Source: Gemmatimonadaceae bacterium (lineage in GTDB: Bacteria; Gemmatimonadota; Gemmatimonadetes; Gemmatimonadales; Gemmatimonadaceae). Taken from it: 40,979 bases of DNA. Under the pieces are notes generated by a model. That model was not told where the DNA came from. It did not search any database and worked only from the letters and a program-made list of their open reading frames with translations. The position numbers and the translations under genes were made by a program. The stretch is taken from the NCBI GenBank assembly GCA_016741895.1, contig JACVCT010000004.1, positions 6,751 to 47,729 of the forward strand, read 5' to 3'. Of this stretch, positions 597 to 11,499 are shown piece after piece (the stretch's first letter is position 1; the number at the start of each line of letters is the position of its first letter).

Positions 597-3116
597 ATGC
601 CGCTCTCACCACAATACGCCCCGCGCGCCGAGAATTCGGCATTGATCCGGGCCGCACTGATCGACCTCTGGGCCAGCGGGATGTCGGTGGCGTTCGCGGC
701 GGTGGAGACCTATCTCGCCTCGAAGGGGACGCCGCTGAGCAAGCCCACGGTGGCAACGCAGATTCGCACGTGGAAGCTGGCAGGCTTGGCCGAGACGACC
801 GCTGCCCCACGCGGGACCGGAGAGAGACTTCATACGCTGCGGCTCGGCGGCCTGAAGACGGCCACCGCGACGCTGCGCACCGTGGTCGAGTTTGCGTTGA
901 CCAGGGAAAGCGGGTTCCCATCGTGGGCCCACGCGAACCTGCGCACCGCGCTGCGTCTCGTGCTCGAACTACCACCCGGGGCGGACCTGCCGACGCTCCT
1001 CACCGCCGCCGAGGCGGTACCCCCTGCCCGCCTGCGTGATCTGCCTGAGCGGCTCCTTTCGCTGGCCGCATCACGCGGGCTGACGAGGCGAGTCGCGACC
1101 AATCTGGAGAGCGTGTTGCGGCGCGCGCTGCGTTGCGCCGCCGAGCACAACCGGATCCCGTTGGTGTTTGTTGTGCACGACACCGATGCGGCGTGGGACG
1201 CGCTGCGCTGGGCGTTCTTCGGGGCCGACTCCAAGGTGCCGCCGCGCTCGCGGCCTACGTACCGCCGCGCGTTCACGCGGTTCTGGCAGCACATCACGGT
1301 CTTGTTGGCGGATCCTGTCCACGGTCGGCCCAACGTCACCTTCGAGGACGTCACGCCCACCGACGTGGCACTCCTCAAGCGGCATCTCCGTCGTTCCGGG
1401 AAGGCGTGGCTGTACCAGCAAATTCAGCACACGCTGCGGTGGATCGGTAAGACGCACGGTACGGGGCCCTACGGAGGGGCGCGGTCGTCATCGACCGACG
1501 CGGTGTATCTCACCCCCGAAAATCGGTCTCGGGAAGCAGGGACGCTTGGTAGTTGGCCCGCGCTGATCCGGCTCTTTGAGGAACATGGTTTTGGCCCCGA
1601 GTGGCTCGAGTTCCTCGCGTGGTATCGCGACTATTCCACACTCCCGGACGCTGACCTCGCCGCCAACGCGGAGCAGTTCCCCGTTCGCCCCACCAAGCGG
1701 CACCTCGCGCCGGGCACGGTAGTCCGGCGTCACTTTGCGCTGCGGGCATGGTGCGGAATGGCCCGAATAGTCCTCGACAAAGATCCCGCCGATCTCACGC
1801 TTCAGGATGTGTTCGGCGACAGCGCGCGACTGATCGGCGAGAAGTTCAAGACATGGTGGGCTGCGCGCGCCGATGCGGGTGAGGTCACCGACGCGACGAG
1901 CGGGGGCCTGACGACCGTCCTGGTGAGCGCGGCGATGGTGGCACGAGCCCTGTGTGATCGCGCCGCGCACCAACGAGGGGCGCGGCCTGCGGCCGGGAAG
2001 GGGGCGAGCCTTCTCGAGTGGGAGCGCGGTCTACGCACCGCTGAGGAAGAAGCCTACTTCCGAGGCTACCAGGCGCTCACCGCGCAGGCGGATCAGCTGG
2101 AAGAGAAGCGAAAGACGTCGGAATCGGGGCACGTTCACACGACCGCCAAGGATGTCGTGCGCATGATCCGGCAGACGCCGCCCCAATGGTGGCAGCAGGT
2201 GCTGGACGCGATGCTGGCTGAGGTGCAAGCGGGGGTCGCGAAGGGGCGCTCCGGGATGAAGTTTTACCGGCTGGTCAGCGCGACGTATCTGCTCGGATTT
2301 GTGATCTCGACGGGGCTCCGCCGTGGTGAGCTCGCGCACGTGCGGATTGGCGCCTACGTCAACCGCAAGGGGGAGCGAGTCGACCGACAATACGGCCCGG
2401 GCAATCGCGCAGCTCGCGTTGTGAAACTCCGAGCAGTGGACCGGAAGAACCGGCGACAGCACATCGCATGCGTTCGCGAACGCTTCTGCCCGCTGTGGTT
2501 GGAGACCCTGTACCTCGACAAGGCGCGCCCGTTCTTTCTGGCCAAGGGGCAGCAAGAGCATGACTGGTTGTTCGTCAATACCAGCGGCGCGCCGTACGGG
2601 TGCATCAACGAGACCGATTCAGGGCAACGCACCGCGGAAGACATGCATCGGTCCACCACCCGAAAGCTGATGCTGACCAAGACGTTTCAGCAGCAGGTGG
2701 CAAGGGCCGCCGCGCGCATTGGGCTGCCCCTGCCTGACGAGATTCACGAATTCGGTTTCCATGCTGTCCGCAACGTGTTCGCGTTTCTGCTGTTTCAGAC
2801 GCCCGGGCATGGGGTCACTGCGGCGGCGAACTGGTTGGGCGACCGCACGGCGACCGTTGAGGGCACCTACGCCGAGGTAGACGGCACTTTGGTTGATGTG
2901 TCCACCTGTCGAGACCTCGTCCTGGCGCTCCCGACGGAGGTGGTTGCTGCGAACGGAGAGAGCGCGGAGACGGCAATAAACGCCCCCCGTGGCCTGACCA
3001 GTACCTCCAGCGGGGAAACGACGGAGGAGGCGCTCATGCGGTTGTTGGGGACCTTCACCGGCCGCGACGTCAACACCCGGCAATTGGATCTGATCAAGGC
3101 CGTCCTGACGCAATAG
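597..3116 (+). CDS. Large tyrosine recombinase/integrase-like protein (839 aa)
   Basis: Predicted DNA strand-exchange enzyme of the mobile element. The C-terminal catalytic core is recognisable: box I TGLRRGE (Arg about residue 575), box II FHAVRN (His 722, Arg 725) and a terminal GTYAEV whose Tyr 758 would be the nucleophile. The usual Gly-His before the Tyr is Gly-Asp here (LGDRT). The roughly 500-residue N-terminal part is much longer than in lambda-type integrases (300-450 aa in total) and is probably a DNA-binding region of unknown type. The ORF track opens at 198, but the translation before residue 134 is Cys-rich, unlike protein, and covers the folded region. ATG 597 follows an AGGGGGCG ribosome site. 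A hairpin lies 37 bases after the stop. Confidence 0.8.
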   Translation: MPLSPQYAPRAENSALIRAALIDLWASGMSVAFAAVETYLASKGTPLSKPTVATQIRTWKLAGLAETTAAPRGTGERLHTLRLGGLKTATATLRTVVEFALTRESGFPSWAHANLRTALRLVLELPPGADLPTLLTAAEAVPPARLRDLPERLLSLAASRGLTRRVATNLESVLRRALRCAAEHNRIPLVFVVHDTDAAWDALRWAFFGADSKVPPRSRPTYRRAFTRFWQHITVLLADPVHGRPNVTFEDVTPTDVALLKRHLRRSGKAWLYQQIQHTLRWIGKTHGTGPYGGARSSSTDAVYLTPENRSREAGTLGSWPALIRLFEEHGFGPEWLEFLAWYRDYSTLPDADLAANAEQFPVRPTKRHLAPGTVVRRHFALRAWCGMARIVLDKDPADLTLQDVFGDSARLIGEKFKTWWAARADAGEVTDATSGGLTTVLVSAAMVARALCDRAAHQRGARPAAGKGASLLEWERGLRTAEEEAYFRGYQALTAQADQLEEKRKTSESGHVHTTAKDVVRMIRQTPPQWWQQVLDAMLAEVQAGVAKGRSGMKFYRLVSATYLLGFVISTGLRRGELAHVRIGAYVNRKGERVDRQYGPGNRAARVVKLRAVDRKNRRQHIACVRERFCPLWLETLYLDKARPFFLAKGQQEHDWLFVNTSGAPYGCINETDSGQRTAEDMHRSTTRKLMLTKTFQQQVARAAARIGLPLPDEIHEFGFHAVRNVFAFLLFQTPGHGVTAAANWLGDRTATVEGTYAEVDGTLVDVSTCRDLVLALPTEVVAANGESAETAINAPRGLTSTSSGETTEEALMRLLGTFTGRDVNTRQLDLIKAVLTQ

Positions 3117-3267: not shown

Positions 3268-3282
3268 GCGCCCACTTGGCGC
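3268..3282 (+). promoter_or_regulatory. Shared upstream hairpin element, copy 1
   Basis: GCGCC-CACTT-GGCGC, ending 27 bases before the start of the sigma-like gene at 3310. Nearly the same sequence in nearly the same position precedes its paralogue at 4623. The downstream leader is also similar (CGGAGTTCCGT against CGGAGTTTCG next to the ATG). It may be an operator or a 5'-UTR hairpin. Confidence 0.5.
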
Positions 3283-3309: not shown

Positions 3310-3936
3310 ATGACGCAACGAACCTCGAATCCCTTCCCCATCATTGTCCTCACCCTGCCCTCGGCCGTCGAAGCGCTGTGGATCGCGGCGCTGCTCGCGG
3401 CGTATGGCTCGACGGCGGAGGTACGGCTCCATGGGCGGACGAGCTTTCTACATTGCGCGCAGTGGGCGTTTTACGGGCTGCTGTGTCGCACCACCGGCCC
3501 GCGCGTGTCGCTCTCGTTTCTGCAGCGAATCACGGCACGGGCAGCAGCACGGATGTTGGAGCGCTGGGCGCAGTACCCGTGCGGCCCGCTGGCTTCGTTC
3601 CTTGGGCAGATGCAATGCGCGCTCGATGACGTGATGTTCGGCCAGGGGGAGGCAAGCGCCAATGTGGACAGCACATCCGCCGGAGGCGTACTCACCACGC
3701 TTACGAGAGACGATCAGCGGATGCTGATCGACCGCGTGCGAGGCCGCCTGGCGCCCAACGTGCTCACCGAGTTGATGATCAGAGTCGAGACCGGGGGCGC
3801 ATCCGACACCTCCACGGGTCACACGTCACCCGCGCTGCAGCAGGCGGTGTGTGACCTTGAGTGGGCGCTTCTTGGCGGTATCAGTTATGAACTCGGGCTG
3901 CCGATTCACGAAGAGCGGGCGATGAGGGCGGCATAG
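3310..3936 (+). CDS. Sigma-factor-like protein, paralogue 1 (208 aa)
   Basis: No named family recognised with certainty. The N-terminal half aligns without gaps to the protein at 4623: I count 27 identities over 70 residues, including a shared R-T-x-x-RVS segment and a following IT-x-x-A-x-x-R-x-L-x-x-W. The C-terminal part (GVLTTLTRDDQRMLIDRVRGRLAP...) also matches it. The two-helical-block layout, with a block reading like '...R..L...V...L.P.E..', resembles regions 2 and 4 of a small sigma factor, but region 4 is degenerate and no clear -35-reading helix is visible. The sigma assignment is inference. Start ATG 3310 has GGAG upstream; the open frame extends to 3145 without protein-like composition. 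Confidence 0.6.
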   Translation: MTQRTSNPFPIIVLTLPSAVEALWIAALLAAYGSTAEVRLHGRTSFLHCAQWAFYGLLCRTTGPRVSLSFLQRITARAAARMLERWAQYPCGPLASFLGQMQCALDDVMFGQGEASANVDSTSAGGVLTTLTRDDQRMLIDRVRGRLAPNVLTELMIRVETGGASDTSTGHTSPALQQAVCDLEWALLGGISYELGLPIHEERAMRAA

Positions 3937-3957
3937 CTGCTCACGGTGCCGGTGGCG

Positions 3958-4383
3958 CTAGCCGCGAGGTGGGTCATGGGTGGGCGAGGCGGGCAAGTCT
4001 GACTCCTCGCCCACGTGACTCAGCAAATCGTACACAACCGGGTTCAACACCGTCCATCGGTACGGAAGGTTCAGGAGCCGGGCCACCGCGGCGGCGACCG
4101 AGCGCGACCTCGAGATTCCGGCATCGCACGACAACACCAGTCGCCGGCGTCGCACGTGACGCGACACGAACGCGACGATTCGTCGCGCGTCCTCAATGCA
4201 TATGGAGCGTGCGTCAGGACGAGATGCCGCGAGGCTGCCAGTATCGTCAAACACCAGCGCCAACACCTCGATCCAACCCGCCCGCTGCGGTGCCGTCCTG
4301 CGCCCCGGCGTACTGATCGTGATCAGCACTTCGTCCACCACGGGTGTGTACCTCGCGAGCTTCGGCGCACTGAGCACTCGCAT
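3958..4383 (-). CDS. CX5R protein phosphatase (tyrosine/dual-specificity type, 141 aa)
   Basis: Predicted cysteine-dependent phosphatase. The signature CDAGISR (Cys 86 to Arg 92) followed by SRSVAAAVAR is the P-loop of the protein tyrosine phosphatase superfamily, with Cys as nucleophile and Arg binding phosphate. An upstream Asp pair (FDDTG, about 46-47) could supply the general acid. The fold and length match the short stand-alone family that starts like MRVLSAPKLARYTP..., so I chose the ATG at 4383. An in-frame ATG at 4473 (MSLLPRS) and an open frame to 4608 are alternatives. It is transcribed against its neighbours and ends 21 bases from the convergent sigma-like gene. The substrate is unknown; a partner kinase is not visible in the window. 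Confidence 0.75.
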   Translation of the reverse strand: MRVLSAPKLARYTPVVDEVLITISTPGRRTAPQRAGWIEVLALVFDDTGSLAASRPDARSICIEDARRIVAFVSRHVRRRRLVLSCDAGISRSRSVAAAVARLLNLPYRWTVLNPVVYDLLSHVGEESDLPASPTHDPPRG

Positions 4384-4584
4384 CTGCAATACACCGCTCT
4401 GCCCTTCCTCGATGTCCCCGACATAGCCGTCGGTGGCAAGGCGTCTGGGCAGAGATCGGGGTAGCAGGGACATGCCTTCAAGGTGACACGCGTTTGGTGC
4501 GCTGGCTACCCAACGCGGAACAGCCCCGAGCTCGCTGGCGCTGCGATCATCCGCGCCCCCTGCCGGACCGCCACAGTCTGTTCC

Positions 4585-4599
4585 GCGCCCGCTTGGCGC
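4585..4599 (+). promoter_or_regulatory. Shared upstream hairpin element, copy 2
   Basis: GCGCC-CGCTT-GGCGC, ending 23 bases before the ATG at 4623. See copy 1 at 3268; the spacing and flanking leader are conserved. Confidence 0.5.
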
Positions 4600-4622
4600 C
4601 GAACACACACTACGGAGTTTCG

Positions 4623-5234
4623 ATGAGAACCATCACTCAACGTCAGGTCACTGGCCTGGCCCCGTTGCAGGCGCTCTACGTCGCCGCCCTGATCGCGGTC
4701 TCCGGCTCGTCCGAACGCGTTCGCCGTGTCGCTGCACACGCATTCGAGCATAGCGTCATCGCCGCGATCTGGGGATTTCTCGCCCGTCACACGGAAGCGC
4801 GCGTGTCGTGGCTCCGTCTCGCCTCGATCACGCACGAAGCGACCAGACGCTTTCTTCACGATTGGCCACGGACCACGACGATCAGTGTCGAATCGATGAT
4901 GGCCGTGCTGGAGCAATGCACGCACACGGCCGCGTTCACGGTCACGGCGATGCCGGCCGCGGTTGAGCCTGCTGGCCATCTCGGAGTGCTGACGCTTCTC
5001 TCACACGAAGAGCGTGTCCAGCTGCTGCAGTCCGTTCAAGCGGCGCTCACGCCCGCTGAGCTGTGCGTGCTGCACGCGGTGATCGAAGACGAACAAGATG
5101 GCATCCGACTTCGCTTGGACGCGGACATGAACGTCACGGGTGCCATTGAACGCCTGGAATCGCTGCTCCTCGGGGCGTGCACCTACACGCTCGGCACGCC
5201 GACGGCCATCGCGAACGGACGTCTCGCCGCATGA
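4623..5234 (+). CDS. Sigma-factor-like protein, paralogue 2 (203 aa)
   Basis: Paralogue of the gene at 3310: the first 70 aligned residues match without gaps, and the C-terminal GVLTLLSHEERVQLLQSVQAALTPAELCVLHAV lines up with its counterpart. The second block resembles sigma region 4 (helix with R..LL..V...L.P.E...L, then ...VTGAIERLESLLLG) more clearly than in paralogue 1, which supports the idea of a degenerate sigma or anti-initiation factor. The role is inferred from layout only. ATG 4623 follows CGGAGTTTCG (GGAG site); the ORF-track start at 4494 would add non-protein-like sequence covering the upstream hairpin. RmuC begins 75 bases downstream on the same strand. Confidence 0.6.
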   Translation: MRTITQRQVTGLAPLQALYVAALIAVSGSSERVRRVAAHAFEHSVIAAIWGFLARHTEARVSWLRLASITHEATRRFLHDWPRTTTISVESMMAVLEQCTHTAAFTVTAMPAAVEPAGHLGVLTLLSHEERVQLLQSVQAALTPAELCVLHAVIEDEQDGIRLRLDADMNVTGAIERLESLLLGACTYTLGTPTAIANGRLAA

Positions 5235-5309
5235 TGCCAACGGTGGGCGGCGGTTCGACGGGCACGGCGATCACGCCGCTCATCGGCAATACCACTACAA
5301 CGAAGGGAG

Positions 5310-6824
5310 GTGACGCGTAGCAGAACTGCCTTGATCCACTATCCTTGCCTTCGTCGGGCCGCCACGGACCGACCCACTCTTCAACCAGGAGTCACATTCG
5401 ATACGTCGATCAACACAGTCCCTACCGTTGTGACATGGGCGCTGGCCCTCGCGTTCATCGTCGGCATGGTGGTCCTGGTCCTGTTCGCCAGAATGCTGAT
5501 GTCGAAGCATCGCGAAGAACGCGTTCGTCTTCTTGCGGAGGCAGAGGGGGCACGAACGCGCGCAGAGGCGGTGGCCCTCGAGCGTGCACAGCTCGACGCG
5601 CAACTGCGCGCCACCCGCGAGGCCGCAGACGCGCAGCGAGATGCCGTCCAGCACCTGTCGGCCGAACTCGGCGAACGCCTGCTGCAGCAACAGGCCAGCG
5701 CCTTCGAGGCAACCACTGCAGCGCTCGAACGCCGCGCGAATTCGGAGAGCGAGGCGATCCGCGCCGCCTATGAGGCGGCGACCGCCGAGCGGAACGAACG
5801 TTTACACGTCGAGCTTCAGCCGGTGCACGAGACGCTGCAGAGGCTGGCCGACACCTCCGTCGCCACCGACACCCGCAGCGCGGCGGAGTTCTCGCGTCTG
5901 GTTACGCTCGTACAAGGTCTCAACGACGAGCACCGTGCGCACCGGGAGGAGACGCGCAAGTTGCAGGACACTTTGCGCGTATCGCAGGTACGCGGCCGGT
6001 TTGGTGAGTGGACGCTGCAGCGCGCGCTGGAGGCGGCCGGTCTCCAAGAGCGCGTGCACTACGTGCTGCAGCCCACCCTGCGCGATGAGGAGGGACTGTT
6101 CCGGCCCGACGCCGTGCTGTTGCTGCCGCAGGGCCGCGCCATTGTCATCGACAGCAAGGCGCCGTTACAGCACCTGCTCGACGCCCAGAACGCGTCAACG
6201 CAGAGCGAGAAGACCGCGCTGCTCGACCGCCATGCCAAGGCACTGCGCACGCATATCGATCAACTCGCGAGCAAGGCATACGCCGCACGCGTGGCGGCGG
6301 TCGTCCCGGATCGGGTGCTACTCGACGGCGTGCTGCTCTTCGTGCCGGCCGATGCGGTGCTGGATGCGGCCTACCGCCGCGATCCGAAGCTGGTGCAGCA
6401 CGCGCTCGGGCAGCATGTGCATTTGGTGTCGCCGGCCTCGCTGCTGCTCGCGCTCAGTGCGGTGGAGCAGTTGTGGCGACAGGACGGGCGTGATCAGCGG
6501 GCGGCGGAGATCGAGAAGATCGGGGCCGATCTGCTGGGCCGCCTGAGTGTTGTGCTCGGGCATGTGAGCCACGTGCAGCGTGCGTTGAGCGACTGTGTGG
6601 CGGCCTACAATGCGCTCACCACGTCGCTGGAATCTCGACTCCTCCCCATCGCGCGACGGATGGAGGAGCTGGGCGTTCGCACGCGTGAGCCCATGCCCAC
6701 CATCGGCGAGATCGACACGGTGCCACGCGAGTTGGGGCCGCGCCTCAGCCGTGCGCTGGTCTCTCCGCAAACGGACGTCACCACGACGTCCGTTGCCTCC
6801 GACGACACGCCCGCCGCCGCCTGA
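5310..6824 (+). CDS. rmuC: RmuC-family DNA recombination protein (about 504 aa)
   Basis: RmuC proteins limit inverted-repeat-driven rearrangements and carry a PD-(D/E)XK-type nuclease-like core. Visible here are a membrane segment at about 41-60 (WALALAFIVGMVVLVLFA), a long Ala/Glu/Arg-rich coiled coil to about 225, and the family core with GRFGEWTLQRALEAAGL (229-245) and VIDSKAPL (279-286), whose Asp and Lys are the presumed catalytic pair. Length is typical. The GTG at 5310 overlaps the GGGAGG ribosome site, so true initiation may be a few codons later, for example TTG 5331. It sits between sigma-like genes inside the mobile element, an unusual location for a gene normally found as a chromosomal single copy. 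Confidence 0.85.
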   Translation: MTRSRTALIHYPCLRRAATDRPTLQPGVTFDTSINTVPTVVTWALALAFIVGMVVLVLFARMLMSKHREERVRLLAEAEGARTRAEAVALERAQLDAQLRATREAADAQRDAVQHLSAELGERLLQQQASAFEATTAALERRANSESEAIRAAYEAATAERNERLHVELQPVHETLQRLADTSVATDTRSAAEFSRLVTLVQGLNDEHRAHREETRKLQDTLRVSQVRGRFGEWTLQRALEAAGLQERVHYVLQPTLRDEEGLFRPDAVLLLPQGRAIVIDSKAPLQHLLDAQNASTQSEKTALLDRHAKALRTHIDQLASKAYAARVAAVVPDRVLLDGVLLFVPADAVLDAAYRRDPKLVQHALGQHVHLVSPASLLLALSAVEQLWRQDGRDQRAAEIEKIGADLLGRLSVVLGHVSHVQRALSDCVAAYNALTTSLESRLLPIARRMEELGVRTREPMPTIGEIDTVPRELGPRLSRALVSPQTDVTTTSVASDDTPAAA

Positions 6825-6857
6825 CGCGGCGCCCCCCGTTGTGATCACCCACGCTGT

Positions 6858-6882
6858 GGCCCCGGCCGTGGTGGCCGGGGTC
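6858..6882 (+). terminator. GC-rich hairpin between rmuC and the third sigma-like gene
   Basis: CCCCGGCC-GTGGT-GGCCGGGG plus flanking weak pairs, 34 bases after the rmuC stop and 20 bases before ATG 6903. No T-run follows. It may terminate rmuC, or act as a leader hairpin of the next gene as in the two paralogues. Confidence 0.5.
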
Positions 6883-6902
6883 CATTCACGCAAGGAGACC
6901 TC

Positions 6903-7598
6903 ATGGAAAAGCGCAATTCTCACCGGCAGCGCGCAGCACGTACGCCTCTTGATCTGTTCCTGTCGCACGGCGCGGGCGTATTCTTCCTCTTCTTGATGTC
7001 GCAGTCAGCGCCGTACTCGGATGCGCGCGCTGCAGCGAGCGCCTTACATCAGGTGATCGAGGAGCGCGTGCGCGCGTATCTCGCACAACTGCTCTTGTCT
7101 GTCGAAATGGATGCGTTCAATCGTGAAGCGCTCATCCAGTCAAGGACCCAGCTCGCTACTGCTCGCGTCGTTGCACGCCTCTCCCGGTGTGCGAGTCGCA
7201 GTCAGCACGATTTCGCTCGCTGGCTCGAATGCCAAATCGCTGATGCGGTAGAAGACGGTGATGACCAAGACCCGCACGGTGGGTCGGCGGCGCTGGCGCC
7301 CACCTCGGTTGTGTCGAGTTCGTGGGCGCTCCACCAGCTCCCGATTGCGCGCGCAGAGCGAGACACGCTCGTGGCTGCGGTGCTGGCTCTGTTGCTGCCG
7401 GCCGAGCGCGAAATCCTGCTCGCTATGGCGCATCCTCGGGTCACGTGGGCTCAAGCCGCACATTCGATGGGGCTCACGATGTTCGAGGCCAAGCAGTTGT
7501 ACACACGGGCCCAAAGTCGGGCGAGTGAGATTGCCGTACAACTCGCCGTGAAGGCCACTGGCGCCAGTAACACCGGGCCAGAGGCGACGGCTGCGTGA
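6903..7598 (+). CDS. Sigma-factor-like protein, possible third family member (231 aa)
   Basis: The C-terminal block (residues about 140-215) reads like sigma-70 region 4: ERDTLVAAVLALLLPAEREILLAM followed by TWAQAAHSMGLTMFEAKQLYTRAQSRA, a helix-turn-helix pattern seen in ECF factors. The N-terminal half has the helical spacing of a region 2-like block (ALHQVIEERVRAYLAQLLLS...) but no strong core-binding signature. Similarity to the genes at 3310 and 4623 is weak and mostly positional, so membership of the same family is inference. Start: AAGGAG lies 8 bases before ATG 6903. The first 30 residues include a hydrophobic FLSHGAGVFFLFLM stretch, so initiation at the internal Met (MSQSAPYSD) is possible. 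A perfect hairpin terminator follows. Confidence 0.6.
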   Translation: MEKRNSHRQRAARTPLDLFLSHGAGVFFLFLMSQSAPYSDARAAASALHQVIEERVRAYLAQLLLSVEMDAFNREALIQSRTQLATARVVARLSRCASRSQHDFARWLECQIADAVEDGDDQDPHGGSAALAPTSVVSSSWALHQLPIARAERDTLVAAVLALLLPAEREILLAMAHPRVTWAQAAHSMGLTMFEAKQLYTRAQSRASEIAVQLAVKATGASNTGPEATAA

Positions 7599-7918: not shown

Positions 7919-8419
7919 TTACGCCCGCGACGGCGGCTCTTGATCAGGATCCGCGAACCACGTTCCGTCGTCACGCTGGCGCAGCCCGGCTCGGCGGCCC
8001 ATCGCAGCAAGATACTCGAGCCAGAGGCCACGCCCCTCCTCCCCGAGGGAGGCAAACAGCTCCTCCGGCGTGGACACATCGAGTTGCTGCGACACGAAGA
8101 TCGCGAGGTGTTCCGTATGCCACGCGTTCGCCCCCGGCGGCGGCGCCCCGAGCCGTACCCGCCAGTAGATCTGCGAAGCACGCCCCGCCTCCTCCGGGAA
8201 CCCCTCGGCGTTCAGGTGCTCGAGCTGAGCGCGCAGCATGCCCTCGTGGTCCATCGGACTCTGTGCCAGGCGCCGGTCGGCCTCCCAGGTCTGCGCGACG
8301 GACGTCGCGATGCCGACCAGCTCTGCGCATGTGCGGATGCTCTTCCCCTGCTCGCGCAATTTGCTGAACTGGTCGCGCTTGTTTCGGTATTCCCTATCGT
8401 TCGCTGGCGGTCGCCCCAT
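7919..8419 (-). CDS. Small HTH-like protein of unknown function (166 aa)
   Basis: Not recognised. The N-terminus (MGRPPANDREYRNKRDQFSKLREQGKSIRTCAELVGIATSVAQTWEADRRL) has the pattern of a basic arm followed by a helix-turn-helix, like small-terminase or Cox-type DNA-binding domains that start MGRPP. The rest is acidic to neutral and helical (MLRAQLEHLNAEGFPEEAGRASQIYWRVRLG..., then TEHLAIFVSQQLDVSTPEELFASLGEEGRGLWLEYLAAMGRR). ATG 8419 has GGGAGGCGAGG upstream at normal spacing. It is the only minus-strand gene in the second half of the element and is divergent from the 8578/8787 genes, so it could be their regulator. That is inference. Confidence 0.6.
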   Translation of the reverse strand: MGRPPANDREYRNKRDQFSKLREQGKSIRTCAELVGIATSVAQTWEADRRLAQSPMDHEGMLRAQLEHLNAEGFPEEAGRASQIYWRVRLGAPPPGANAWHTEHLAIFVSQQLDVSTPEELFASLGEEGRGLWLEYLAAMGRRAGLRQRDDGTWFADPDQEPPSRA

Positions 8420-8577: not shown

Positions 8578-8790
8578 ATGAGCCTATCGATTCTGCGCGC
8601 GACGTTCGTGCGCTTCGCCACCTCCACCGTGCCGCCCGCCGCCCTATGCGCGTCAGCGCCAAACGACGCGGTGGCGTCCGCCGCTGCGCACCTCACGGCG
8701 GGTGTGCCAGAGCGAAGGATTACCCCCGTGCAGGGGTTGGCCGAGATCTGTACCGGTTTCGCTGCGGCGTACGATAGGCTGCCATCATGA
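8578..8790 (+). CDS. Possible small ORF overlapping the next start (70 aa)
   Basis: MSLSILRATFVRFATSTVPPAALCASAPNDAV... has no recognisable family. Support is limited to an ATGA overlap with the start of the gene at 8787 (suggesting coupling) and fairly GC-rich third codon positions. Without a ribosome site, the TACGCT just before the ATG would imply a leaderless message. It could equally be a chance frame across an intergenic region of 367 bases (8420-8786). Confidence 0.25.
   Translation: MSLSILRATFVRFATSTVPPAALCASAPNDAVASAAAHLTAGVPERRITPVQGLAEICTGFAAAYDRLPS
8751..8759 (+). repeat. TACCGGTTT motif, copy 2
   Basis: Second copy of TACCGGTTT, followed after 13 bases by TACGAT and then ATG 8787. 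ACCGGT is self-complementary, as expected of a dimer-binding site. Confidence 0.35.
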
Positions 8791-9404
8791 ACACAGCGAT
8801 CCTTCACGGCGAGTATGTGGTACTCCCCACGACGCTCGTACCGTCCATGTTGGCGGACGCGGCCTCCATGGTGGCGGATTCGGCCACCCTGACGGTGCAG
8901 AGCTATCAGCAAGCGATGCTGATGCTCGTGCGGTGGTACGAGGCGGGGCAGCTGGCGGGCCGTGGCGCCCCTGCCACGCCCCCCGGAGGAGGTGCACCGT
9001 CGCCGGTCGCTATCGCCCCCGATCACGCCGCCGTCGTGCCCAGCACGCTGCTCGTGACGAAAGCGCCAGAAGCGCCGACGACGAGCACGGCGCCCGCGGT
9101 GGCGCTCGCGACGGCGTCGAACGCCTCCGCGCCTGCCCCGTCGTCAGCGAAGACGGTGGAGCCGGAAGCGCCCCTGTGTGAAACTGCCAAGGCGGAGGCG
9201 GAAACGGCGAAATCGATGGAGCAGCCGGTAACGGAGGCTCCAGCGACATCGCCGCGCCGCCGCATCGCCCGCCCTTTCCTGCCGGCATCGTCGCCCCCGC
9301 CCGAGGCTACCCCACCCTGCGACGCGCTCGGCCACGCGGCCCGTCAAGCGATCTCGCATCGCATCGGCCCCGACGTGACTGATCCTGGCGCGCAGGCCCC
9401 CTGA
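8787..9404 (+). CDS. Ala/Pro-rich protein of unknown function (205 aa)
   Basis: Not recognised. Residues 1-55 (MNTAILHGEYVVLPTTLVPSMLADAASMVADSATLTVQSYQQAMLMLVRWYEAGQLAGRG) look like a short folded, mostly helical module. Residues 60-165 are a low-complexity Ala/Pro/Thr/Ser linker, and the end (RRRIARPFLPASS...) is basic. This resembles an adaptor with a disordered arm. It is followed after 12 bases by the 600-aa recombinase on the same strand, so the two are probably co-transcribed and it may be an accessory factor for integration or excision (inference). The ribosome site is weak. Confidence 0.55.
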   Translation: MNTAILHGEYVVLPTTLVPSMLADAASMVADSATLTVQSYQQAMLMLVRWYEAGQLAGRGAPATPPGGGAPSPVAIAPDHAAVVPSTLLVTKAPEAPTTSTAPAVALATASNASAPAPSSAKTVEPEAPLCETAKAEAETAKSMEQPVTEAPATSPRRRIARPFLPASSPPPEATPPCDALGHAARQAISHRIGPDVTDPGAQAP

Positions 9405-9416
9405 GCGAGAGTCCTC

Positions 9417-11219
9417 ATGCCCCGTCCTCGTAAGCTCCTCAGCCACACCACCCATCTGCCGGATGGGCGTCGGATCGTACTCGAAGAACGTCGCAATCGG
9501 CGCCCCCAGGCCCGCTGGTGGGATCCCGAAAAGCAGGGCTATCACCGCGTATCGCTTATGACTGTGCCGCACCTTAACAACGGGATTACACGCCAGCTCT
9601 GCCCGACAATGATCGCGAGGGCGCTCGAAGAGGCCGCTGCGCGGTTACCGAATCCCAACGCGCGACCGCGCGTTACCGTCGATGACGCTCTGCATGCGGC
9701 GCTTGAGGGCGACGCGAAGAAAGAACGGAGGAAGGGCAGCGAACAGCAGCAGGAGTGGAGCCGCGCGCGCGCGGAGCTTCAGGCCGTGCTGACGGTGCCG
9801 ATCCCGGTGGAGGAGTTGCTCCCGCAACACCTCACGCTGGTCGCGCGGTCCGCCCTGCTCCGAGTATCGGCGGGGTGCTCCCTTGACGATTGGGGGCACT
9901 CTATTGATGCGATTGGCAGCCCCGCCACGGCCGCACTGTCCTCGATCCAATGGATCGAACAGATGCAGCAGATGTTGCGCTCCGTATACGCGACCGCCCT
10001 CGAATCCGCCGATCCGGACAGGCGCCGCACCCCCGGACTCCCGTGGGCGGTCCGCTGCGCCGAGGTTTTGCGCGCCGCCCTTCGTCAGGCCGGGCAGCAT
10101 CCCGACTTCGCCCGACTGCAGCACTTCTCGCTGTCGAAGGACATGATGGTCGCGCTGGCCAACGAGGCAGAGGACTGCGGGATTGACCTCCCAGACGGTC
10201 CGGCGCGGCCGAGATACGAGGAGAAGGCCGCGCGTGGCCTGTTCCGGTTGCTCCGCGATCCGCGGTGGCGGCTGCTCAGCCTGCTCTCGCGCACCAAGCG
10301 GGGCCGTGTTGGTGCGCTCGAGATCACGCGAGCCACCCTCCAGGTCCGCAAGGGCGAGCTGGTAGTGCGGCAGTGTGTCGGCGGCCAGAAAAACCCGAAC
10401 CAGTTCTTGCACACCCCCATCGCCCCGGCGGCCGCGCAGATGGTGCAGCACGTGCTGCTCACGCACTACGCCGATGCGGAAGCACAGTACCAAGACGACG
10501 GCACCGACTACGCGTTGTTCGACGGGTGGACGTGGGACGGTCGGACGCTGACGGCCAGCGCCTCGACGAAGTTCGTGGATGTGGATCCGCGACTGCTGTT
10601 ACTACTCGAGATTGGCGCGGAGGCGCGCTGGGAGCAGCAGATCCGCCTTCACCGTCGGGATCTCCTGACATCCGGGGCAACTTTCTTGACCAGCGAAGTC
10701 GGGCTCGGCGACAACAAGCGCTCCGGCACGCGCCCCCTCTCGGCGACCGCGTTGGAGGCCCTTGGGTTTGAACTGGAGTACGGCTACCTCGCCGAGCTCG
10801 AACAGGCCTTTCGCCGCGGGGAGATCAAAGACTACCCGCTGTTCGCCGGCAAGGAGTTCAACGGCGGCGTCATCCCGTGGCGTGGCGACGCCCTGGCCCC
10901 GATCCACGCCGATGTCCTCAAGCGGTGGAACAAGCGGCTCGAACAGGCCCTCGGCCTCACGTCCGTGGACGGATTGGGCTTCCGTGGGTGGCGGCGCCGG
11001 TTGGCGGATGTTTACGAGCGCTGGGCGACGAGCGCGCGGGTCAAAGACATGATCATGGGCCACAAGCAGGTGAAGGTGAATTTCAACGGCGGCTCGACGC
11101 GCGAGGTGGTGTATCTCGACATCCGCGACGAAGCCCTGACCACGGAAGCCATGCGCTTGCTGCAGCACGCCCGTACGCAGTGGGCACTCACTGGTGAGGC
11201 GCCGCCGACGAGCACGTGA
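9417..11219 (+). CDS. Divergent tyrosine recombinase (600 aa) beside tRNA-Pro
   Basis: Probable integrase of the element. The last third has a degenerate catalytic core: SRTKRGRVGALE (Arg about 295) in place of box I, then GFRGWRRRLADVYERW...VKDMIMGHK and TREVVYLDI, with Tyr 566 as candidate nucleophile. The box II His is replaced by Arg (R523-G-W-R526). A 220-residue insertion separates box I from box II. Its stop is followed by a strong hairpin and then, about 200 bases on, by the 3' end of tRNA-Pro, the usual arrangement for tRNA-targeting integrases. ATG 9417 was chosen; GAGAG lies just upstream. The low similarity to classical integrases leaves activity uncertain. Confidence 0.65.
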   Translation: MPRPRKLLSHTTHLPDGRRIVLEERRNRRPQARWWDPEKQGYHRVSLMTVPHLNNGITRQLCPTMIARALEEAAARLPNPNARPRVTVDDALHAALEGDAKKERRKGSEQQQEWSRARAELQAVLTVPIPVEELLPQHLTLVARSALLRVSAGCSLDDWGHSIDAIGSPATAALSSIQWIEQMQQMLRSVYATALESADPDRRRTPGLPWAVRCAEVLRAALRQAGQHPDFARLQHFSLSKDMMVALANEAEDCGIDLPDGPARPRYEEKAARGLFRLLRDPRWRLLSLLSRTKRGRVGALEITRATLQVRKGELVVRQCVGGQKNPNQFLHTPIAPAAAQMVQHVLLTHYADAEAQYQDDGTDYALFDGWTWDGRTLTASASTKFVDVDPRLLLLLEIGAEARWEQQIRLHRRDLLTSGATFLTSEVGLGDNKRSGTRPLSATALEALGFELEYGYLAELEQAFRRGEIKDYPLFAGKEFNGGVIPWRGDALAPIHADVLKRWNKRLEQALGLTSVDGLGFRGWRRRLADVYERWATSARVKDMIMGHKQVKVNFNGGSTREVVYLDIRDEALTTEAMRLLQHARTQWALTGEAPPTST

Positions 11220-11394: not shown

Positions 11395-11425
11395 TAAGTC
11401 AAACTGTTTGAACTACTTACCCAAG

Positions 11426-11499
11426 TCGGGACGGCGGGATTTGAACCCGCGACCCCCTGAACCCCATTCAGGTGCGCTACCGGGCTGCGCTACGTCCCG
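11426..11499 (-). tRNA. tRNA-Pro (anticodon GGG)
   Basis: The reverse complement folds as a full cloverleaf: acceptor CGGGACG/CGTCCCG, anticodon stem CCTGA/TCAGG around loop ATGGGGT (anticodon GGG), T-arm GCGGGTTCAAATCCCGC and discriminator A. The CCA end is not encoded. Its 3' end faces the recombinase gene, marking this as the likely integration site of the element to the left. Confidence 0.95.

What the first reader, a model, noticed from the sequence alone, without database searches (positions are those of the whole stretch)
3310..7598. Small family of sigma-factor-like proteins repeated within one element
Paralogues 1 and 2 align ungapped with 27 identities over 70 residues and both end in a block resembling sigma region 4. 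The third member has the clearest HTH. Two or three degenerate sigma-like proteins in about 4 kb is unusual and could form a cascade or a set of sigma-like adaptors.
Basis: partly seen in the sequence, partly recalled or inferred. Interest (0 to 1): 0.68.

Follow-up and report, generated by a model that had tools for sequence, protein, structure and literature searches.

The report
Sigma-like partners of island RmuC nuclease
A mobile island in a Gemmatimonas genome carries a membrane-anchored nuclease-family gene (rmuC) that in every related island is followed by a protein descended from RNA-polymerase sigma factors but lacking their polymerase-gripping motif, plus two still more eroded relatives upstream, which together look like an undescribed regulated nuclease module, possibly for phage defence.

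Summary
The three ORFs are real and at the stated coordinates. Members 1 and 2 are clear paralogues (30% identity, 179 residues ungapped, E 4e-17). Member 3 has no BLAST match to them, but its family is sigma-derived: profile match to this genome's own ECF sigma factors (E 6e-10, shuffles never close), and its model finds ECF sigma factors first in the PDB. Members 1/2 match member 3's family only remotely (profile score 29 against 12.6±2.4 for shuffles), with the same helix order minus one HTH helix. A sigma cascade is not supported: across nine member-3 loci the region-2.2 core-binding signature is gone (D 0/9, Q 1/9, F 0/9), while region 4 is kept. The island ends at the 3' end of tRNA-Pro, where the closest relative compared instead carries a Hhe-type defence gene. 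Best reading: an RmuC nuclease module analogous to Shield, controlled by sigma-derived proteins. Function is inferred, not shown. A 15-bp dyad lies upstream of all three member-1/2-type genes; the longer pattern holding it occurs nowhere else in 395 genomes.

The parts
597..3116 (+). IntA: 839-aa tyrosine-recombinase-like protein at the left of the island genes
   Evidence: weak Pfam Phage_integrase E 4e-4; no close relative in the genus, only one weak partial match
3268..3282 (+). dyad GCGCCCACTTGGCGC in the leader of P1
3310..3936 (+). P1 (member 1), 208 aa, eroded sigma-like paralogue
   Evidence: 30% identity to P2 over 179 aa, E 4e-17; remote profile match to the P3 family
3958..4473 (-). 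protein-tyrosine-phosphatase-like gene (C-x5-R signature CDAGISR), recurrent neighbour of the module
   Evidence: 56% identical copy next to P3 in L034; PHROG 5614 E 1e-8; the L034 copy hits Pfam Y_phosphatase only weakly, E 0.0065
4585..4599 (+). dyad GCGCCCGCTTGGCGC in the leader of P2
4623..5234 (+). P2 (member 2), 203 aa, eroded sigma-like paralogue; homologue in L031/L072 also directly upstream of rmuC
   Evidence: model
5310..6824 (+). island-borne second RmuC: N-terminal membrane helix, intact GE..PD..DSK nuclease motif
   Evidence: Pfam RmuC E 1.4e-74
6903..7598 (+). P3 (member 3), 231 aa, ECF-sigma-derived protein with region-4 HTH and degenerate region 2.2
7919..8419 (-). small HTH protein of the island (also in L031)
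8787..9404 (+). 205-aa protein preceding IntB (also in L031)
9417..11219 (+). IntB: 600-aa putative recombinase of a family found beside tRNA-Pro in several genera
   Evidence: no family-library hit of its own; role inferred from location of relatives
11425..11499 (-). tRNA-Pro(ggg); its 3' end is the right border of the island
   Evidence: synteny with four relatives stops there

Best explanation
The finding is part of a mobile nuclease module. Its core is a membrane-anchored RmuC (PD-(D/E)xK nuclease family) plus P3, a protein descended from an ECF sigma factor. P3 keeps the sigma fold and the region-4 helix-turn-helix but has lost the region-2.2 signature that grips core RNA polymerase, so it most likely no longer acts as a promoter-directing sigma factor. 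Most likely it binds DNA and/or RmuC and restrains or triggers the nuclease, as downstream accessory proteins do in Shield systems. P1 and P2 are further-eroded paralogues without a complete HTH; they are probably protein-binding modulators, and their expression is tied to a conserved 15-bp dyad in their leaders. The module travels as cargo of tRNA-targeting islands, and its likely role is defence against phage or other incoming DNA. Shown by sequence: family relations, linkage, loss of motif, island border, dyad. Inferred: nuclease activity, regulation by P3, defence role.
For: P3 follows rmuC in 9 of 9 loci, with gaps of 78-112 bp where measurable. In 30 Gemmatimonas genomes the intact extra rmuC occurs in 7 loci of 6 genomes, exactly those with P3. 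Seven of 8 island RmuCs form one clade, 100/98, apart from canonical RmuC. Nuclease motif intact in the eight island copies, membrane helix in the window copy. P3 family aligns to own-genome ECF sigmas at E 6e-10, score 67 against 11.8±1.5 shuffled; sigma factors top the PDB fold list; region-2.2 D/Q/F lost, region 4 kept. P1/P2 remotely match P3. Island border at tRNA-Pro; the same site in the closest relative compared holds Hhe/PDC-S37. Shield paper: RmuC-domain ShdA is a membrane-bound DNA-degrading antiphage protein with partners encoded downstream, one of which restrains it (PMC10270631).
Against: No experiment. The defence role rests on analogy and on a hotspot shared with a defence gene. 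PADLOC's RmuC model does not discriminate. P1/P2 occur in only two genomes, so they are not part of the conserved core. The P1/P2-P3 link is weak (hhalign probability 18%) and the fold search of P2 found nothing. Models rest on three sequences each.
Confidence: 0.5

Rival explanations
1. P3 is still a working alternative (ECF-type) sigma factor, controlling the island's own genes; P1 and P2 act on it as anti-sigma or decoy proteins, so the set is a small transcription switch.
For: Sigma fold over regions 2 and 4; region-4 residues and region-2.3 WL kept; a unique dyad lies in front of P1 and P2.
Against: Core-binding signature lost in all nine loci. The dyad is not in front of rmuC or P3, and it is a palindrome, unlike the two-part promoters of ECF sigmas.
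Confidence: 0.2
2. The genes serve the mobile element itself: RmuC limits DNA rearrangement or helps processing during integration, and P1-P3 are regulators of excision.
For: Large recombinase-like ORFs lie upstream of rmuC in several islands and tRNA genes lie beside several; E. coli RmuC is known for limiting inversion of short inverted repeats (PMC10270631).
Against: rmuC-P3 is linked to unrelated recombinases in different islands, while IntB relatives occur without rmuC or P3; the L029 and L030 loci show no recombinase nearby.
Confidence: 0.2
3. P1 and P2 are not related to P3 or to sigma factors; they are a separate all-helical family that happens to lie next to the rmuC-P3 pair. (This can hold together with the other explanations.)
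For: No BLAST match; hhalign probability only 18%; no sigma match by profile or fold.
Against: Score 29.2 against 12.6±2.4, 0 of 60 shuffles; the best two matches of 117 proteins are P3 proteins, in long collinear alignments; same helix order in both models.
Confidence: 0.25

Closest known systems
Shield antiphage system (ShdA with ShdB-ShdE; PMC10270631)
   Same: Membrane-anchored RmuC-domain protein in addition to canonical RmuC, with partner genes encoded downstream, on mobile or defence-like loci
   Different: Shield was reported only in Pseudomonas; its partners are described as metallopeptidase-like (ShdB) or of unknown fold, not sigma-derived. Direct sequence comparison with ShdA was not made here.
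ECF sigma factors (sigma-70 group 4)
   Same: P3: regions 2 and 4, HTH core residues, helix order
   Different: Region 2.2 core-binding signature lost; a hydrophobic N-terminal helix in all members; always next to rmuC
Canonical chromosomal RmuC
   Same: RmuC domain and nuclease motif
   Different: Island RmuC forms a separate clade, is an extra copy, and has the P3 partner
RmuC associated with defence reverse transcriptases (PADLOC RTasRmuC)
   Same: Sequence match E 4e-36
   Different: No reverse transcriptase was recognised here; canonical RmuC matches the model just as well

Membership tests
ECF sigma factor (P3) | Homology over sigma regions 2 and 4 | tested here: met
   hhalign E 6e-10 over residues 44-211; PDB fold hits
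ECF sigma factor (P3) | Region 2.2 core-RNAP binding signature (AED..Q..F) | tested here: not met
   D 0/9, Q 1/9, F 0/9
ECF sigma factor (P3) | Region 4 HTH core residues | tested here: met
   L, L, R, A, G, A kept in 9/9; region 4 superposes on SigL at TM 0.80, 2.0 Angstrom
ECF sigma factor (P3) | Binds RNA polymerase and directs promoter-specific transcription | not testable with these tools
   needs biochemistry
ECF sigma factor (P1, P2) | Detectable homology to sigma regions 2 and 4 | tested here: not met
   profile score 14.9, within shuffles; no significant fold match
Member-3 (P3) family, for P1 and P2 | Profile-level homology to P3 | tested here: inconclusive
   0 of 60 shuffles, best two of 117 proteins, but hhalign probability 18%
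RmuC family (5310-6824) | RmuC domain with GE..PD..DSK motif and N-terminal membrane helix | tested here: met
Shield | Membrane-anchored RmuC-domain protein with downstream partner | tested here: met
   system features from PMC10270631
Shield | Sequence relation to ShdA and to ShdB-ShdE | not tested
   those sequences were not fetched
Shield | Antiphage and DNA-degrading activity | not testable with these tools
   needs experiments
tRNA-integrated genomic island | Recombinase next to a tRNA 3' end, with synteny of relatives breaking there | tested here: met
   the recombinase role of IntB is inferred
tRNA-integrated genomic island | attL/attR direct repeats | tested here: inconclusive
   none found; the left end may lie beyond the contig

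The most novel reading that the evidence does not exclude
A new nuclease (probably antiphage) module in which sigma factors were converted into dedicated regulators of an RmuC nuclease: one copy keeps the DNA-binding domain but not the polymerase-binding surface, and further copies lost the DNA-binding domain as well, with a private operator or leader element.
Probability: 0.35. Interest if true: 0.8.

Novelty: new variant of a known kind. Interest (0 to 1): 0.55.

Why it matters
It would extend RmuC-based defence beyond Pseudomonas and show sigma factors repurposed as polymerase-independent regulators of a nuclease. It gives a directly testable two-gene system, present also in G043 (one contig of 4,636,964 bp, a length I recall as that of Gemmatimonas aurantiaca T-27), where the role of RmuC partners could be studied.

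Tried and rejected
Pairwise BLAST of P3 against P1/P2: nothing. Single-protein Pfam, NCBIfam and PADLOC scans of P1-P3: nothing; PHROG scans gave only insignificant hits, among them a sigma factor at E 0.34 for P3. Viral-contig scans and plasmid tblastn with P2- and P3-type proteins: no relatives. PADLOC RTasRmuC as evidence of a reverse-transcriptase defence system: rejected, canonical RmuC hits it equally. attL/attR repeats of the tRNA: none. Large upstream recombinase-like proteins as one conserved family: not supported. A first residue-mapping table was misregistered and was replaced. In the RmuC tree, rows L098-L100 are probably wrong-frame extractions (branch 8.19) and are ignored. Rfam: chance hits only. 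Dyad as a stable RNA hairpin: folding z-scores mixed (0.0, -3.2, -1.5), so RNA element versus DNA operator is left open.

Full report
OBSERVATION. The three ORFs lie where stated: P1 3310-3936, P2 4623-5234, P3 6903-7598, all on +. P3 has no BLAST match to either. The window genome has no further copies of P2-like genes.

WHAT P3 IS. Homologues of P3 were found in eight further loci of related genomes, giving alignment A1. Seven of nine members hit Pfam Sigma70_r4, best E 3.4e-6, and solved sigma factors top the PDB sequence search (SigF, E 0.0011). As an internal standard I collected ECF sigma factors from the same genome. The P3 profile aligns to them over both region 2 (residues 44-116) and region 4 (150-211) with Prob 96.6 and E 6.3e-10; score 67 against 11.8±1.5 for 60 column shuffles and 16.3 for the reversed profile. 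The AlphaFold model has low overall confidence (pLDDT 64, pTM 0.41), with well-predicted helices in both domains. Nearly all of its best PDB fold matches are sigma factors, mostly ECF. No hit reaches E 0.001 and whole-chain superposition is poor, as expected if the domain placement is uncertain, but the isolated region-4 domain superposes on SigL region 4 at TM 0.80, 2.0 Angstrom.

WHAT P3 HAS LOST. At positions conserved in this genome's ECFs, all nine P3 proteins keep the region-4 core (L, L, R, A, G, A in 9/9) and eight of nine keep each of the region-2.3 W and L, but the region-2.2 signature that binds the polymerase clamp is gone: D 0/9, Q 1/9, F 0/9 (the role of that signature is established knowledge of sigma region 2.2). 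P3 is therefore sigma-derived but unlikely to be an ordinary sigma factor.

P1 AND P2. Only one further homologue was found, in genome G067 (L031 7377-7985), directly upstream of rmuC. Their profile matches the P3 profile with score 29 against 12.6±2.4 for shuffles, none of 60 reaching it; among 117 proteins the two best matches are P3 proteins, in long collinear alignments. The helices run in the same order in both models, except that P2 has a loop (157-168) in place of the first HTH helix. A direct match to sigma factors is absent by profile and by fold. I read P1/P2 as probable, more eroded relatives of P3; hhalign's own probability is only 18%, so this step is not proven.

CONTEXT. Between P2 and P3 lies rmuC (5310-6824). 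In all nine P3 loci an rmuC reading frame ends just upstream of P3 (gaps 78-112 bp where measurable; in L032 only the last part of rmuC is on the contig). Of 30 Gemmatimonas genomes, 29 have at least one rmuC; the intact extra copy occurs in seven loci of six genomes, exactly the loci that carry P3 (a 126-bp fragment in G061 is the only other second match). Seven of eight island RmuCs form one clade (100/98), apart from the canonical ones. The nuclease motif GE..PD..DSK is intact in the eight, and the window copy has a strong N-terminal hydrophobic helix. Between the window and G067, RmuC is 84% and IntB 79% identical, but P3 only 49% and P2 30%, so the partners evolve much faster than the nuclease. 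A C-x5-R phosphatase-like gene lies between P1 and P2 on the other strand (3958-4473) and recurs next to P3 in the otherwise different island L034.

ISLAND. IntB (9417-11219) lies beside tRNA-Pro(ggg). It hits no protein family; its recombinase role is inferred from relatives that lie beside tRNA-Pro(ggg) in G067 and elsewhere in the family, there with other cargo. Synteny with four relatives stops at the 3' end of tRNA-Pro, within two bases. At the same site the closest relative compared, G048, carries a DUF4011-helicase-nuclease that matches PADLOC Hhe and PDC-S37 (E 3e-260 and 0), and G056 a Fic protein. This makes a defence role plausible by association only. The left border and att repeats were not found.

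DYAD. The sequence CTGN4GCGCCCRCTTGGCGC occurs three times in 395 genomes of the phylum sample, each time just upstream of a P1/P2-type gene; the reversed pattern gives three scattered hits, which is the chance level. The element is better conserved than the proteins it precedes and lies at nearly the same distance from the start codon. Flanking bases partly extend the dyad differently in each copy. Operator or RNA leader cannot be decided with three copies.

MECHANISM. Best-supported: a Shield-like RmuC nuclease module (PMC10270631: membrane-bound RmuC-domain ShdA degrades DNA and protects against phage; partners are encoded downstream; ShdB restrains ShdA) in which a former sigma factor, P3, took the partner role, with P1/P2 as further modulators. 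Shown: homology, linkage, motif loss, island border, dyad. Inferred: nuclease activity, control by P3, defence. Confidence 0.5. Rivals: P3 as a residual sigma factor (0.2), a role in element mobility (0.2), and P1/P2 unrelated to P3 (0.25; this one can hold together with the others).

Noticed in passing
3958-4473 (-) and L034 about 10080-10560 (-): A C-x5-R protein-tyrosine-phosphatase-like gene recurs beside the rmuC-P3 module in two otherwise different islands (56% identity), matching PHROG 5614 of unknown function.
   Followed up: partly
3268-3282 and 4585-4599; also L072 upstream of 7730: The dyad GCGCCCRCTTGGCGC stands in the leaders of P1, P2 and the G067 homologue; the longer pattern holding it is found nowhere else in 395 genomes. 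Operator or RNA element unknown.
   Followed up: partly
597-3116; L033 5758-8124; L034 5321-7687; L035 2929-5274: Very large ORFs (781-839 aa) precede rmuC, directly or with P1/P2 between, in four islands; two have weak tyrosine-recombinase Pfam matches, and apart from L033/L034 they are not detectably related to each other.
   Followed up: partly
L174 4753-10065 (G048) and L177 2755-4263 (G056): The tRNA-Pro(ggg) site holds a Hhe/PDC-S37-type defence gene or a Fic gene in relatives, so it looks like a defence hotspot of the genus.
   Followed up: partly
L028 543-1796 (window contig, left of the window): One ORF joins a piece of a type I restriction R subunit to a peptidase M48 domain; it may be a truncated gene or an assembly artefact.
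   Followed up: no
L155 4990-6621 (G000:C27): A second IntB homologue (about 70% identical) lies elsewhere in the window's own genome, near transposase-like genes and without rmuC or P3.
   Followed up: partly
L033 10480-11500 (-) and L034 10040-11560 (-): A roughly 310-320-aa open frame with an HTH-like segment (DTLDKIAKDH.VTRQTLHAWVRA) lies between P3 and the integrase in both tRNA-Gln islands.
   Followed up: no
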